Assembly: GCA_949710005.1 (NCBI GenBank)
Contig: OX453276.1
Location: forward strand, 16,821,949-16,885,948
Reading direction: 5' to 3'
Length of the DNA: 64,000 bases
Origin: Ricordea florida
Lineage: Eukaryota > Cnidaria > Anthozoa > Corallimorpharia > Ricordeidae
Position numbers and translations under genes: made by a program. The notes below the pieces were generated by a model. That model ran no database searches and was not told where the DNA came from. It saw only the letters and a list, made by a program, of their open reading frames with translations. Below, piece by piece: positions 1,365 to 49,969 of the stretch. Numbering within the stretch: position 1 is the first letter of the stretch; every line of letters starts with the position of its first letter.

Positions 1365-1716
1365 TGGACCTGTTAAGCCAATTAAGCCGTAAATAAGGAC
1401 TGTTAACAACCAATCATATTCGAGTATTTTGTTATTGACTCAATTATAGTAATAATGATTTGTTCTAGCAAGCTGAAAATTCCCCTAATTATAACACTTG
1501 ATAAAACTCGACGTTCTGTTTCATATCGACGCTTAAAAGTAAGATATCGTAAGATATCGTCGGGCAATAGCCCTTTTTACAGTTTCAGGCACCATATTGG
1601 ATTTGTAACCACGCAAAACATGACAGCGAGGTTAGTGTTGAGTCACGTTGCGAGTTTTCGGGAGATTATAGTGAAACGTGGCATTGCTCTGTTGTTTTCA
1701 TCAAGATATTTCGACA

Positions 1717-23590: not shown

Positions 23591-25577
23591 AGCGGGGCTC
23601 CCGCGCGTGGAGCAGAGCCCCATACTCATGGAATATGGTCAACCTCTTTTCTTTTGGTTGTCACGTGACTGATCGAGCGTACGTACGTACGTACGTACGT
23701 CCGTACGCGTCTACAGATTGTACGGGTAGGGTAGGGGAGACTATCAAAAGGAAGGGAGGGGTATCTCAGGCGTGTCTTGGCAAATCCACATCTTTTATAT
23801 TGGACATTTACAATATGGTCAATTGACAGCTGTCAAAACGGGATAGCCACTGACCAGCATCACATGACCATATTGTGGGCTCATGTGTCAACTCATCGAG
23901 GTGATGTGATTTATTTGGAAGCTGTTCTGGTAGCCTGCATATTTTTGGCGGGAAATTGCGTTGACGACTGAAAAAGAAATTTTCAGTTCATTGTCTTTTT
24001 GAGACACAATATTAATACTCTACACTGTTAAAGTTTTACTAAAGGATAAACAAAACAATTTCTATTGCTATGTCAACAAACAATAGCAGAGAAAATATAA
24101 TTTGCAGAACACAGGGTTCAGGTGAAGAGCAACGGGAAAGAGAGCAAGAATTAACTGAGGAAGAATGAGCGAAGTAGATTGCCAAAGAAGGCGCGCTCGG
24201 GAAAGAGAAAGGAGACGAAATTATAGCGAAGAACGCTGACAAGCAGAAAGAGTCCGGGCTCGAGAAAATAGACAAAATGTTAACGAAGAACGCAGAGAAG
24301 CGGAAAGATTCCGTGCTGTGGAAAACAGACAAAATTTTAGCGAAGAATGCCGAGAAGCGGAAAGACTTCGTGCTGTGGAAAACAGACAAAATTTTAGCGA
24401 ATAAAGCCGAGAAGCGGAAAGACTCCGTGCCGTGGAAAACAGACAAAATTGTAGCGAAGAAAGCCGAGAAGCGGAAAGACTCCGTGCTGTGGAAAACAGA
24501 CAAAATTGTAGCGAAGAAAGCCGAGAAGTGGAAAGACTCCGTGCTATGGACCACAAATTTGCATAAGTTTTGTCTGCATAATATTTGCTCACTGATGTGT
24601 GACTCAGCACTCGCACTTTCCACTTTCCCTTAAACTTGACACTTGACTTGGAAAACCGACTTCTAAACAAACCTTCTTTAGAAAAATGATCTTCTGAATG
24701 CACTACTTTTGAATGAGAAGCAAACTGATGAAATATTTCAAATTTTTATGTCCTTTAATGATATAAACATCTCCCCTGTCGACGGCTAAGAAATACTCCC
24801 ACGGGAATTTTCTCTTGGCGGCAAATTGCAGAATGTAGCGCTTTCACTGGCAGCTTTTCGCGTTGTCGATGTTGTCATTTAGTGTGTCGATTGAGAACTT
24901 TGGTTTCAACGCCGTTTTCGTAAAAAATGTTCTTCTAAATTGTAAAATGTCTCAAATGTATGTTAGTCATTCACGTGTTGCGTTGGATCAGGTCTACTTA
25001 TAGTTCACACTTTTACGGTTATTTATTTCTTTTGTTTAAGTAACTACAGCTGATTGTAGTGAATAAATGAAGGCAGTAATTTTTTAAACTTACAATATAA
25101 TTAAGAAAAGAATAATTATTTTTTCATTCTCGTGAAAAATGTTTTTCGGGCTGGTAGATGTTGGTTACAGCTTGCCCGAAGGGCAATCTGTAAAATTAAT
25201 TTTCTTTGCACCCTGCTTGGAGTAAACATTTATTTTACCGAGGTGTTCGTTTTAACACGAAAATGACAAGAGTTGTGTCCTGCATTTCCCAGTAGCGTGT
25301 ACAAATCTTTTAAATACATTTACGCAAATAGAATGGTTAATTTCATTAGGAATAGAATACATTACATTGATAATTTGTGTTTTTTGTAGAATATACTCCA
25401 TGACTTTGTAGGTAGAAAGACCGTACTTATGGCAGACGAAAGTTTAGACAAAAATCATAGCAAGTTAACCGACCTCGACACTTAACTATAGTTAAAAACG
25501 TTTGTGAATTCCTTCGCAATATTTTAGAATGCTTTTACAGTTTAAAGTGAAATGAAAGTACTAACGGGAGCCCCGCT
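23591..25577. mobile_element. Element with 13-bp inverted ends AGCGGGGCTCCCG
   Basis: AGCGGGGCTCCCG at 23591-23603 is matched exactly in reverse at 25565-25577. Just inside the left end GGGGCTC..GAGCCCC can fold. A (ACGT)n run at about 23678-23699 follows. The only coding-like content is the 57-bp tandem repeat described next. No target duplication is obvious. It may be a nonautonomous DNA transposon or a deletion derivative. Between 24630 and 25560 I see no gene. Confidence 0.6.
24166..24560 (+). repeat. 57-bp tandem repeat encoding an Arg/Glu-rich 19-residue unit
   Basis: About five copies of a 57-bp unit lie at 24275-24555. In the frame starting at ATG 24166 each unit reads REAERLRAVENRQNFSEEC with small changes, forming a charged, probably helical array. 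In-frame TGA (24237-24239) and TAA (about 24402) interrupt it. Similar arrays occur, as I recall, at the N-terminus of cnidarian Helitron helicase proteins. The repeat is open in more than one frame because of its 57-bp (3 x 19) period. Confidence 0.7.
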
Positions 25578-29884: not shown

Positions 29885-30527
29885 TTAGCTGGAGCTCGTG
29901 AAGTAATGTCCGTCCTGGCCAACTCACCCCTGACATTTACAAGTTAGATGATATGGAATACAAATTTAAAGGCTACATGTACTAGTTAGTGTTTTATTTA
30001 CAAAGTTAAGGGTCCCTAACTTGTTTTTTACCTACACACTAACAGCCATTTATGATCGTACCTCGAGTTTATTTTTGAAGGGAAATTGAGAATAGTACTT
30101 CAGCGAGGTCTCGCATGTTTTTGCAACATGTGCACTAAGGCAGTCAAAAGATGAAAGTGAAGGTGCAAGGATGCTTTTGTTTCAATGTTAATTTTTCATG
30201 GTGATTAGTATTTTGTCCGTTTGAATGATGATTTTCAGTAAAAACGTTTTTTCTTAAAGGGCCGCAGACCTCAAACCCAATTAAACCCTTGGGTCATCCC
30301 TTGTCTTCAGCTGTTGTTGAGTCTTCAGCTATTGGACCCATTGTTGCTGATGGTTTGCCCATAAATTCTGAACTTTGGAGCGAGTCTCCCATTCGAGATC
30401 TTTCTATACGCATTCGAGATCTTGCTGGTGTAGATGGCAAGAGCACTAAATCAGCAATGTAGGTTGCAATTACAAATACCTGCATTTTGTTACAATTTAA
30501 GTTTGTTGACTGTATTTACATCATCTG
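29885..30527. other. No firm gene; open frame after an AG at 30258
   Basis: On the plus strand 30259-30459 reads openly (SAVVESSAIGPIVADGLPIN, then LWSESPIRDLSIRIRDLAGV) after a CTTAAAG acceptor-like site. It could be an exon of an unknown protein. I do not recognise it. Confidence 0.3.
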
Positions 30528-30588
30528 CTAGCTGTGCCATGCTGATGAGGCCTAACAAGGCCGAAACAGCAGTCCATGGCTGCTGGCT
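30528..30588 (+). ncRNA. Hammerhead ribozyme, minimal type I
   Basis: All core parts are present in order. Stem I 5' strand GCCATG (30536-30541), CTGATGA (30542-30548), stem II GGCC-TAACAA-GGCC (30549-30562), GAAA (30563-30566), a minimal stem III made by C30567 with G30572 and A30566 with T30573 around an AGCA loop, and the GTC cleavage triplet 30572-30574. Stem I 3' strand CATGGC (30575-30580) pairs perfectly with 30536-30541. An outer AGC/GCT pairing (30530-30532 with 30586-30588) extends stem I past an internal loop. Predicted self-cleavage after C30574. Minimal hammerheads of this form are known from Penelope-like elements and other animal retroelements. No reverse transcriptase of that type is seen next to it. 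Confidence 0.85.
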
Positions 30589-30779
30589 TTTGAGCTCAAT
30601 TTTTTCATCTTTTTTTTGGTAGCAACAGGGTTTTATCCCTTCTAACACTGTTGCCTCAATGCACATATGCGTGGCCTCAACTTACCCTTATTACATTTTA
30701 ACATTATATAATATACTATACGAATTTTCTAGAACTATCTGTGAATGTATTTAAACAGCGTTATCGCACAACTCTACAC

Positions 30780-30962
30780 TTACTTACGGAAGCTCGGAGT
30801 TAGTCTAAAGTGGTCAAGAGTTATTTGGAGATTGCACCGTTTCCTGTGATTGAAGAAGCTATCCGAGGAAGAATTGAAGTTGTTTGCTCTCAAGTGGATA
30901 TATCTCAAAGGAGTTTGTGACTTTTCCTTATACAGATACACCACTGTAGATTTCCTAGCCAT
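30780..30962 (-). other. Short minus-strand frame, unassigned
   Basis: Sixty codons with MARKSTVVYLYKEKSQTPLR and FNHRKRCNLQITLDHF. No homology recognised and no splice context resolved. The surrounding 30590-31380 interval shows nothing else. Confidence 0.2.
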
Positions 30963-40897: not shown

Positions 40898-42598
40898 TCA
40901 TTCCCTGCTTGTCAATACTAAAAAAGATTGATTACTTTCACATTGAAGGGAAAAGTATTGGGGACGTAGACTGCTGCCAATAAGAGAGATAGGCAGTTCA
41001 TTCGTGATTATACGGAATGTTTTCAGTCGCCTGATGGCCTGTTCTACAAAAATGCGTAGATTAGCTACTGTCTTAGTTTTCTGTACATCAGCTTTTGTGA
41101 AGTGTTCTTGTCCACGTTTCCCTGGTGGAATAAAAAGGTCAGCTCTGTGAAGCAAGAGATCCTCTGCAATAGTGAATCCACGATCTGCCATTATTGCATC
41201 ATATGGCTCAAGGATGTTGTAAAACTCTGATTCCCTTGTCAAATGGACATCTGAGGTACGCCCGCCCCATGCCTCTGAGATGAAGTTGAAGGCCCCATTT
41301 GGGGTGATTGAAACTAGGATTTTTGCAGTTTTGTGGTGCTTGTAATCTGGCCACGTTGATGCTCTGATTACAGGGTCACTTGGGGTCTCTATAGAAATTT
41401 CAGTGCAATCTATTATATGGCGCACCTTGCAGTATCCTCCTTTTTTGAACTTCTGTGGCAGTATTTTCTTTACAACTTCCATGCTAGGATTGTATATTAG
41501 GCATTTCAGTTCACTAGCCAAAATTTTGACCCATGTGTTGAAAATAGTTGATACGGTACTGCTTGAAATGCCAAATCTTTGTGCAAGGTCTGCATTTGTG
41601 GATCCCAAACGGAGTTTCATTAGTGTTAAAAGAAACTCGTCCTTTTGAGAAAGAGCCCGTTTTGGTCCAAATTTTTTTGGTGATTTCCTAAAGTTCCTGC
41701 CTTTTATGGATGTTTTCTTAGGGCCACTCCAATATGTCACTTTTTTTATAGATCCTTTCGCAGAATCAAATAATTTGTTAAAGGCAGGCCTTGATGGGAT
41801 ATACCAGTCAGTAAATGTACAGTCTGGTTATTTTTCAGATCTGAATGCTTCAATCCCTTATCCTGTTTGGCCACAAGTTGAACTTCCAGCAACTTCACTT
41901 TTTCAATTAGCTCCTGTATTTTCTCTGAAAGTTCCATGATTTTTTCATCTTTGTCTTGCCTGCCTTTCAAGCAAGATGTGTTCATGCAAAAATTCGAATT
42001 TTCATTAATTTCATACCAGCCATAGACATAGCAATGGTCATGAATTACGGATGCTCTGTCTATGTCAACACAATCACTGATAGAAGTAGAGGGCTCAGGG
42101 TCTAAGAGCTCAAAACCATCACAAGCCAGGTTGTCGGCTGAGTGCTCAAGAACAGGCACTGGTATTTCATCGCTACATGTATCTAGCTTAGCTCGTTTTA
42201 TGGATCTTACAACAAGAGAGTTATCCCGTGGCGTTGGTGGTGGGCGTTTATAGGCTCTCGTTTTCTTGTTGTGACCAAGTTGCAAAGTCGGGTCTGGGTT
42301 TTCAGCCGTTGGTTCACCGTCAACAAAGTGTAGATTACAAACTCTTGAATCCTTGTTAGGCATCCAAAGAGTCCCATTCAAACTGTTCCTGCTTACATTT
42401 TTCGCCCATTGTAATCGGCGTTCCGGGTTCTTCTTTTCTGTCGGGAACGGGAATAATTTGAAGGGTGGGTGGCAGTCACACATGCTTGAGCCATTGTTAC
42501 AACCATGAAGCTTACAGGTTGTAGCAGCCCATTTCCCTAGCCTTTGTCCACTGTTAGGACAGCCTATGACAACACAATTTCGGTGGCCGAATCCCATG
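40898..42598 (-). pseudogene. THAP + DDE transposase, ISL2EU/IS4EU type (copy 2), one frameshift
   Basis: ATG at about 42598 (MGFGHRNCVVIGCPNSGQRL) follows an intron-like TTTAAATGTAG. The THAP finger has C..C, an inserted Cys/His-rich loop, LQWAKNV and CNLHF. A linker and a coiled coil (KIMELSEKIQELIEKVKLLE) come next. Near 41800 the frame shifts by one; the new frame continues RPAFNKLFDSAKGSIKKVTYW. HTH: ADLAQRFGISSSTVSTIF. Catalytic residues all look intact: Asp in IIDCTE, Asp in MADRGF and Glu in IFVEQAI, with DYKHHKTAKILVSITPNG between. The end (IGSSLRPQYF) does not match the family, so the last residues are probably lost to the LINE insertion. Closer to functional than copy 1. Confidence 0.85.
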
Positions 42599-43616
42599 GA
42601 CAAAGTATCTACATTTAAACAAAAGAAATATGACATAAGTCTGAGTATAAAATAAGAAAAATCATATTCGTAGCATCTGAAATCAACTACACTGCAGCCT
42701 AAATTCGTTAGAATGACGTTGCTAAAAAGTAACGAAACAATAACTTACCTTTAAAATACCTTTGATTTGGTTTTTCTATATTCCTGCACATGTAGTTCGG
42801 CTCAAAAGGAGGGTCTCTTTGCGTGAAAGGTCACTGAAGCCAAGCCAGTCGATGTAATCCGATATGGTGAAGCTGCAAGTTGATGCCCACTTTTCTGAGC
42901 CCGCCTACCCACAATGCCCGCAATCCAATAGGAAGTCCAGAACTCCTGACGCATGTATTATCCCTCATACATCTTTTCATGGCAAATTAAAGCAAGCTAC
43001 AAGCTAGACTGATTTTCTTCAAGTAAACCAAAATGAGAAAAATTCCTGCTCCTGCCTGAAATTAAACAAAACCAACTGACACAATTAACTACCGTCCTTG
43101 GTGGTAAGCCATCACTTTCCAAAGTGGACTATGTTTTGAACACATAAATGAAAATTCTATCAGAAAAATTATAGCAAAATGGAAGCAGCGAATAAGCAAT
43201 TTGTGACCACTTTGTGAACTCCGCACATCTGGTTTATCTCTAAACAAACAAATCAATATACCATTGGTATTAAAAGGATTGTGGATTAAATCTTGAAATT
43301 CGGCTCTGTACTGTAATGGTAGATGAATGTTGTCAAGGAAACATGAAAGTATTGACTTTCCCATTATGTGATCAGGAACTACATATAAAGTGGAATCCCG
43401 ATTCCTTGAACCTTCGATTTCTCGAACCCCCCCCCCCCCCATAACTTGATTTGAAAGTGGTTTCTTCACTCCAAAACAAACTGCACTGAATTTTAGCCCC
43501 CAATTTCTTGCAACATTATTTTAATTTAACTTTCTGTTAGAAGTTCAAGAAATCGGAATTCCATTGTACCCTTTGTTGCATTGTTCCTGGCCTCCCAAAG
43601 TACTTTACAGATTAAC
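42599..43616. other. Upstream flank of the transposase, no gene
   Basis: AT-rich. Should contain the transposase promoter and the element's outer inverted end, which I could not identify. A poly-C run occurs at about 43430-43440. Confidence 0.4.
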
Positions 43617-49052: not shown

Positions 49053-49969
49053 TTGTGTAAGAAACGGGATTTGTAAGAGTAAGTAGTATACCAACGTTAT
49101 ATGCGGAGCGCTCTCTGAAACGTCCGCACAGTTCGTCCGCAACTGTCCTTAACATGACACTTGTGGTTTGAGGGACAAGCACCCTGAGCTGAAACTTAAG
49201 ATATCAGAGCGGCAAAAAGAAATCAAACGATTACAGCAAGAACACTGCGATGCAGAATCAAAGCTGAAGGCGTTTTGCGAGTCCCGTGTGAAGGCATCAA
49301 CTTCATTTTTTGCAGTAATGCGTCCCAGACTTAAAGTGCGTAATTTAATCAAGTACAGTGACCATGCTTCCTTAGACCGAGATCTTCTTATTCTTGAAAA
49401 AACACTGAATGGAAAGATTCCTGAATTTGATACGAGCGAGGATTGGCAGTTGCCAATTCTGATTTAACAGTATCGAAATAGAAATGTTGATATTTATTTG
49501 AACAGCATCGTTTTCTTCAAAGATAGTTAACAAAAAATTGAGTTTTTAGGGTATAATACCACCTTTAAGAAAGCAGAGCAAAATGTAATCATGTGCTGTG
49601 AAGTTTATTAGGACTTGTTTATATCATCACGATTTAAGCACATATGAGCACTTTGATTTACTAGAGAAGTATTTTACGATACTTGGAAGTACCGGTAAAT
49701 CACTGCATTTAACTAACCTTTATCTGAATGTTGAATTTGAAAGGAGATTTAGAAGACGAGAGGAATGCTGAAGAGCTTCGAAGGATTGCTTGATGAAAAC
49801 ATGCCATCTTGGAAAACTTGGTAACCAAACTACGAATTTGAGGAGTACTGGAAACTAACATAGCTGCACATGCACATTTGATTTGTTGTTGGTCATTGAC
49901 TTTTGTTAAGTTGGTGGCTCCTAAAGGAGCCGTTTGTTTAGTAAGCAAAGTCCCTGCTCACTTGAACCC

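What the first reader, a model, noticed from the sequence alone, without database searches (positions are those of the whole stretch)
30528..30588. Intact canonical minimal hammerhead ribozyme
Every conserved core base is in place: CTGATGA, a 4-bp stem II, GAAA, a two-pair stem III with an AGCA loop, a GTC cleavage triplet, and a perfect 6-bp stem I. The chance of all parts pairing by accident is small. Minimal hammerheads are known in Penelope-like elements and retrozymes, yet no reverse transcriptase is seen within several kb, so the carrier is unclear.
Basis: partly seen in the sequence, partly recalled or inferred. Interest (0 to 1): 0.8.

Follow-up and report, generated by a model that had tools for sequence, protein, structure and literature searches.

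The report
Coral retrozyme with two-sided insertion marks
The spot is a self-cutting RNA motif inside a short repeat found in hundreds of places in this coral-like animal's genome, and the way its copies sit in the DNA suggests that a Penelope-type reverse transcriptase copies the RNA into both sides of a DNA break at once.

Summary
The hammerhead is real: 35.4 bits with Rfam HH9 (E 2.5e-7, but below that family's cut-off of 52), with compensatory changes against other hammerheads of the genome. It is full-length, not minimal. Its carrier is now clear: window 30521-30705 is a truncated copy of a 258-nt, tandem-forming, non-coding repeat with 846 ribozyme cores in the host genome, matching published metazoan non-LTR retrozymes.

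New here is how copies insert. In 100 mapped loci, 135 of 146 three-prime ends lie at one of two sites, A (u185) or B (u226); 46 of 100 loci are head-to-head, none tail-to-tail; in 36 of 37 pairs with both outer ends classed, one end is A and the other B. Target duplications are 11-16 bp and the target motif is two-fold symmetric. Penelope-like elements of this genome show the same orientation bias (13 of 13 inverted neighbours) and a tail on one arm only (4 of 5 loci examined, the fifth unreadable). I infer that a Penelope-type enzyme primes both DNA ends on retrozyme RNA. The partner element was not found and nothing was tested at the bench.

The parts
30521..30705 (+). truncated single retrozyme copy, u1-u185 of the 258-nt unit; 3' end at site A; no target duplication found
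   Evidence: 93% identical to the natural unit of L045; duplication score 4
30528..30586 (+). type I hammerhead ribozyme including the outer stem I helix (30528-30532 with 30582-30586)
30536..30580 (+). inner stem I (30536-30541 with 30575-30580) enclosing core, stem II and stem III
30542..30565 (+). catalytic core CTGATGA, stem II with loop TAACAA, and GAA
30566..30574 (+). two-pair stem III with loop AGCA, and the cleavage triplet GTC (30572-30574); predicted cut between 30574 and 30575
   Evidence: cleavage itself not tested
30690..30705 (+). sequence ending at site A, one of the two recurrent 3' ends of the family; the tail from A to B is absent here

Best explanation
Window 30521-30705 is a truncated genomic copy of a non-LTR retrozyme, a 258-nt non-coding repeat whose RNA is cut by its own type I hammerhead. 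Inferred cycle: tandem copies are transcribed; the hammerhead frees unit-length RNA; this is circularised; a Penelope-type reverse transcriptase with endonuclease binds the region downstream of the ribozyme and makes a staggered, two-fold symmetric cut (11-16 nt apart, most simply with 3' overhangs) in AT-rich DNA. Both 3' ends of the break prime synthesis on the retrozyme RNA, one from site A and the other from site B, about 41 nt apart. On a circular template a cDNA can exceed one unit. The two cDNAs are joined, giving head-to-head inserts with a tail on one side only, flanked by a target duplication. If one arm is lost or very short, a single-orientation copy remains, as in the window. Shown here: the repeat family, tandems, two end sites, orientation bias, the A-plus-B rule, duplications, target symmetry, and the same orientation and tail pattern in Penelope-like elements of this genome. 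Inferred: cleavage, circularisation, the enzyme, priming of both strands, use of one RNA for both ends.
For: Family and tandems. Two end sites: 135 of 146 three-prime ends in A or B, 17.8% expected. Orientation: 46 of 100 loci head-to-head, 0 tail-to-tail; in the 100 listed of 721 site-A pattern places, 11 inverted neighbours within 700 bp, all head-to-head. A-plus-B: 36 of 37 classed pairs, 1 A-A, 0 B-B; 27 of 27 in sets B and C, which played no part in noticing the sites. One event per insert: duplications (score 9 or more) in 32 of 45 head-to-head loci against 0.5% for mismatched flanks. Symmetric target: 37 sites, p 6e-7 and 6e-8. Template circular or multimeric: 48 of 146 segments exceed one unit (list). 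Penelope-like elements: 13 head-to-head, 2 same-strand, 0 tail-to-tail neighbours among 125 GIY-YIG matches; one tail per pair in 4 of 5 loci. PMC11167929 (abstract and parts 1-2 of 4): a purified Penelope protein cuts and extends both strands and starts at two internal RNA sites that bound the genomic tail.
Against: No Penelope-like element sharing sequence with the retrozyme was found (8 loci compared); those fetched sit in (TA)n, whereas retrozyme targets are mixed AT-rich sites. My Penelope-like calls rest on GIY-YIG domains and a YxDD motif; Pfam RVT_1 did not match them at E 0.001. 9 of 46 head-to-head loci have one outer end at neither site, and one is A-A. 45 of 98 loci show no duplication at the cut-off used, the window copy among them. 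Cleavage and circles were not tested, and in PMC11167929 the hammerhead was not needed for insertion in vitro. The AC-rich hairpins around A and B are predictions without covariation.
Confidence: 0.7

Rival explanations
1. Retrozyme mobilised by a LINE: ordinary target-primed reverse transcription, with L1-type twin priming making the inverted copies.
For: 11-16-bp duplications are LINE-like; PMC4918200 made this comparison for Nematostella repeats (passage). LINE-type ORFs are present in the window. Twin priming also gives head-to-head inserts.
Against: Twin priming starts the second cDNA at variable places in the RNA (recalled); here both outer ends are fixed, one A and one B, in 36 of 37 classed pairs. 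The target motif is symmetric about both cuts. I saw no poly-A or other 3' repeat at the ends printed (by eye).
Confidence: 0.15
2. Head-to-head copies come from snap-back or self-priming, as proposed for rotifer Penelope elements in PMC3846280, or from later recombination between independent insertions.
For: PMC3846280 reads palindromic junctions that way (passage); 5 of 46 retrozyme pairs have inner ends within 5 nt of each other, and two Penelope-like loci are near-complete palindromes (L072, L073).
Against: In 41 of 46 pairs the inner ends differ by more than 5 nt. A shared duplication brackets 32 of 45 pairs, so two separate insertions are unlikely. Neither idea predicts the A-plus-B rule.
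Confidence: 0.08
3. A domesticated intronic hammerhead like the amniote HH9 type, acting on a host mRNA.
For: The best Rfam match is HH9.
Against: The score is under the HH9 cut-off; the core is present in 846 dispersed places and the whole 185-nt copy is repetitive.
Confidence: 0.02
4. Chance or a dead remnant: the letters resemble a hammerhead but this RNA does not cleave.
For: A single truncated copy, 93% identical to the natural unit; sub-threshold Rfam scores; RNAfold prefers another pairing.
Against: All core bases are intact and 8 of 17 pairs vary on both sides across 7 hammerheads of the genome; descriptor chance about 1 in 60 windows.
Confidence: 0.05

Closest known systems
Metazoan non-LTR retrozymes (Cervera and de la Pena 2020, PMC7229834; e.g. 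the coral Acropora millepora, units of about 225 and 245 bp)
   Same: Type I hammerhead, short non-coding low-GC unit, tandem copies, no LTR, duplications longer than 4 bp, stony-coral-like host (paper: section 13 read, other passages)
   Different: Unit 258 nt; fixed A/B ends, head-to-head order and symmetric target are not mentioned in the parts read; expression and circles not tested here
Penelope-like elements (PMC3846280 passages; PMC11167929 parts 1-2)
   Same: Head-to-head inverted copies, tail on one of the inverted ends, two adjacent start sites downstream of a hammerhead, short duplications, AT-rich targets
   Different: No ORF in the retrozyme; no sequence similarity beyond chance to 8 loci compared; full-length instead of minimal hammerhead; duplications 11-16 bp against 8-10 bp in the rotifer passages
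Rfam Hammerhead_HH9 (RF02275), amniote intronic hammerhead
   Same: Secondary structure and core, 35.4 bits
   Different: Under the gathering cut-off of 52; a mobile repeat, not a conserved intronic locus
Plant LTR retrozymes (PMC4918200, passages)
   Same: Small non-autonomous hammerhead repeat thought to move through RNA circles
   Different: Plant ones have LTRs, PBS, PPT, 4-bp duplications and type III hammerheads

Membership tests
Metazoan non-LTR retrozyme | Type I hammerhead with full core and stem I/II architecture | tested here: met
   tertiary contacts themselves not testable
Metazoan non-LTR retrozyme | Short repeat unit (about 170-400 nt), low GC | tested here: met
   258-nt unit, GC 0.45; window copy GC 0.43
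Metazoan non-LTR retrozyme | Occurs in tandem copies in the genome | tested here: met
   Tandems such as L011, L023, L045, L090; the window copy itself is single
Metazoan non-LTR retrozyme | No protein coding | tested here: met
   Longest stop-free frame 85 codons in a tripled unit, read without a start codon; no protein search was made with it
Metazoan non-LTR retrozyme | Duplications longer than 4 bp when present | tested here: met
   11-16 bp in the family; none found for the window copy
Metazoan non-LTR retrozyme | Self-cleaved, circular RNA in the host | not testable with these tools
   No RNA data at hand
Penelope-like element | ORF with reverse transcriptase and GIY-YIG endonuclease | tested here: not met
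   The unit is 258 nt and non-coding; it is not filed as a Penelope-like element
Penelope-like element | Head-to-head inverted ends with a tail on one of them | tested here: met
   supports works like, not is a
Rfam HH9 | Score at or above the gathering cut-off (52 bits) | tested here: not met
   35.4 bits; best of the genome 39.8

The most novel reading that the evidence does not exclude
Animal retrozymes are parasites of Penelope-type machinery: one RNA circle carries two reverse-transcription start sites, and a dimeric Penelope-type enzyme uses one site for each end of a symmetric DNA break, so that every insertion is built from both sides at once. The A-plus-B rule would then be a genomic record of obligate two-site, two-strand priming.
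Probability: 0.55. Interest if true: 0.8.

Novelty: new member of a known kind. Interest (0 to 1): 0.6.

Why it matters
Which enzyme moves animal retrozymes is treated as open in the papers seen: they argue from co-occurrence, shared hammerheads and tandem copies (PMC7229834, PMC7761336), a later review still names LINEs or Penelope-like elements (PMC11722881), and PMC7761336 says the repeats show no motif that would reveal the helper (passages). A specific insertion signature shared with Penelope-like elements makes the question testable in any genome. It would also support, from genomes, the two-site and two-strand priming reported for one purified Penelope protein (PMC11167929).

Tried and rejected
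Host-gene role for the hammerhead: rejected, since the whole 185-nt copy is dispersed. Autonomous partner by sequence: only chance-level matches between the unit and 8 Penelope-like loci; partner unknown. Run-off of synthesis at the ribozyme cut (u55): not seen, 1 of 54 five-prime ends not selected by the ribozyme lies in u53-57; instead 9 of 54 lie in u66-73, at the 3' base of the ribozyme's stem I (1.7 expected, p 4e-5, interval chosen after seeing the data). Coral MITEs (CMITE, PMC2872659, part 1 of 4 read): another sequence, found in 5 of the loci searched, none in the window. Species: 61 GFP-family matches, whose best solved relatives are mostly coral-type GFPs by name, and the CMITE core point to a stony-coral-like anthozoan; no name assigned. 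Exact ribozyme patterns: 0 hits in viral contigs and in genome contigs. No tandem array of the motif in the window. Pfam PF26215, a number I recalled, is not in the library.

L116 was dropped (79 of 80 loci scored) and 2 of 100 loci. L109 and L110 look like duplicates of one insertion and both count; without one the rule stands at 35 of 36. L101/L102 (same ends, same duplication) and L098/L099/L113 (same inner end and length) may be related too and were not removed. Seven head-to-head loci have one arm of 34 nt or less (L010, L015, L038, L080, L096, L108, L148), four of them among the 36. In one search the cluster with most homology was used per locus and further pieces (L009) ignored.

Full report
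The motif. The stretch 30528-30588 holds every claimed part of a hammerhead. Rfam at gathering thresholds reports only a histone stem-loop in the window. With an E-value threshold the best match in 30300-30800 is Hammerhead_HH9, 35.4 bits, E 2.5e-7, over all 77 model positions including the outer stem I; the family's cut-off is 52, so by the curators' rule it is no HH9 member. A descriptor for core and stems finds only this site in the window and gave 1 hit in 60 resampled windows. Aligned with six other hammerheads of the genome, of which L049 and L125 are clearly different families, 93.9% of pair cells are standard and 8 of 17 pairs change on both sides, more than in any of 500 shuffles. RNAfold alone prefers another pairing.

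The carrier. The window lies in a genome of 538 Mb in 48 contigs. A query of 30480-30700 gave 59 matches, with 40 of 1504 first-look candidates scored; most aligned copies begin at 30521 and end at or near 30705. Tandem copies set the unit at about 258 nt, taken from a natural array in L045. The ribozyme core occurs 846 times with at most 2 mismatches, against 0 for the reversed pattern. The unit has GC 0.45 and no stop-free frame over 85 codons. These are features of metazoan non-LTR retrozymes as described for stony corals (PMC7229834: section 13 read; abstract and passages).

How copies end. I mapped 100 loci on one natural unit (u1 = window 30521; predicted ribozyme cut u54/u55): set A, 40 loci best matching the window; set B, 40 by position for the ribozyme core; set C, 20 by a pattern next to site A. 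Of 146 three-prime ends, 135 lie in A (u176-194) or B (u217-243), where 17.8% would be expected; 5' ends are scattered. 46 loci are head-to-head, 54 have one orientation, none is tail-to-tail in its outer order; L105 has a further inverted ribozyme inside. Without any mapping, the 100 listed of 721 places of the site-A pattern have 11 inverted neighbours within 700 bp, all head-to-head, and 7 same-strand neighbours. Both outer ends could be classed in 37 pairs: 36 are one A and one B, one is A-A, none B-B (p 3e-10 if each end chose freely); 9 pairs have one unclassed end. The sites were noticed in set A; in sets B and C together 27 of 27 classed pairs follow the rule and 6 pairs have an unclassed end. 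Probable duplicate loci are listed under Tried and rejected.

One insert, one event. Duplications of score 9 or more flank 32 of 45 head-to-head and 21 of 53 single-orientation loci, against 0.5% for mismatched flanks. The 37 clearest are 11-16 bp long and 71% AT, against 57% in the 8 bases beyond. The left edge and the reverse complement of the right edge share one motif (p 6e-7 and 6e-8), while the unreversed right edge scores like background. In 41 of 46 pairs the inner ends differ by more than 5 nt, so snap-back synthesis does not explain most pairs. 48 of 146 segments exceed one unit, the longest 964 nt, which needs a circular or multimeric template. No pile-up of 5' ends is seen at the ribozyme cut.

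Penelope-like elements in the same genome. A GIY-YIG search scored 150 of 1215 candidates and listed 125 matches; neighbours within 5 kb are 13 head-to-head, 2 same-strand, none tail-to-tail. Five fetched pairs are long inverted repeats (L071-L074, L077). In four of them, from two families, one arm stops at the (TA)n target and the other carries 77 or 80 nt more before (TA)n (counted by eye); in L072 one arm does not reach that point. Five large ORFs of these loci match GIY-YIG and none matches RVT_1 at E 0.001; a YxDD motif is present, so Penelope-like is my reading of ORF, order and ends. A hammerhead-like motif precedes site A, tail and site B in the ends printed (by eye). Retrozyme and Penelope-like sequences are not alike beyond chance.

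Mechanism. PMC11167929 (abstract and parts 1-2 of 4) reports that a purified lizard Penelope protein cuts and extends both strands, that synthesis starts inside the RNA at two adjacent sites in an AC-rich stem loop, and that the stretch between them is the known genomic tail; it also reports that the hammerhead was not needed for insertion in vitro. PMC3846280 (passages) describes the tail as optional on one of the inverted repeats, duplications of 8-10 bp, and head-to-head as the usual order, which its authors read as self-priming. The retrozyme shows the same pattern: two sites about 41 nt apart flanking a stretch of 66% A+C (48% in the whole unit) with predicted hairpins, one tail per pair, head-to-head order. 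Priming from both 3' ends of a break yields head-to-head and not tail-to-tail inserts. That A pairs with B almost always suggests one RNA serving both ends. The enzyme's identity and the single-RNA idea are inference.

What is in print. Seven searches listed, and the passages read held, no report of head-to-head retrozymes or of fixed retrozyme ends. PMC7761336 says the repeats show no motif pointing to the helper; PMC7229834 calls Penelope-like elements a strong candidate; PMC4918200 likened 15-bp duplications in Nematostella to LINEs. Subscription journals, preprints and supplements were not searched, so priority is not claimed.

The window copy itself is ordinary: truncated at u1, ending at A, without a duplication, 93% identical to the natural unit. 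The interest lies in its family.

Noticed in passing
window 49892-49936, minus strand: Histone 3' UTR stem-loop over its Rfam cut-off (37.1 bits), the only gathering-level RNA match in the window; it marks an animal genome.
   Followed up: no
L071, L073, L074, L077 (Penelope-like loci): Head-to-head Penelope-like elements seated in (TA)n repeats, with a 77- or 80-nt tail on one arm only.
   Followed up: partly
L078 3301, L074 4880, L071 4987 and other spots: Several minimal hammerhead-like motifs beside Penelope-like ORFs and (TA)n runs.
   Followed up: no
L125 about 1493-1553, minus strand; L126 about 1493-1553: Other hammerheads over the Hammerhead_1 cut-off, L125 with 54 bits; L049-L051 carry one inside a longer dispersed repeat.
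   Followed up: partly
retrozyme unit u66-u73: Excess of 5' ends at the 3' base of the ribozyme stem I, 9 of 54 segments, as if synthesis stopped at the folded ribozyme; interval chosen afterwards.
   Followed up: partly
L105 about 480-586: Inside a head-to-head insert the ribozyme core occurs on the + strand and, 79 bases on, on the - strand, hinting at repeated template switching.
   Followed up: no
window 24213-24545: 57-bp tandem array, 5.8 copies, open in frames on both strands.
   Followed up: no
window 40901-42744, minus strand: DDE_Tnp_4 transposase ORF and an overlapping THAP-domain ORF.
   Followed up: no
genome contig C11, about 8.9-19.8 Mb: Most of the 61 GFP-family exon matches lie on this one contig.
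   Followed up: no
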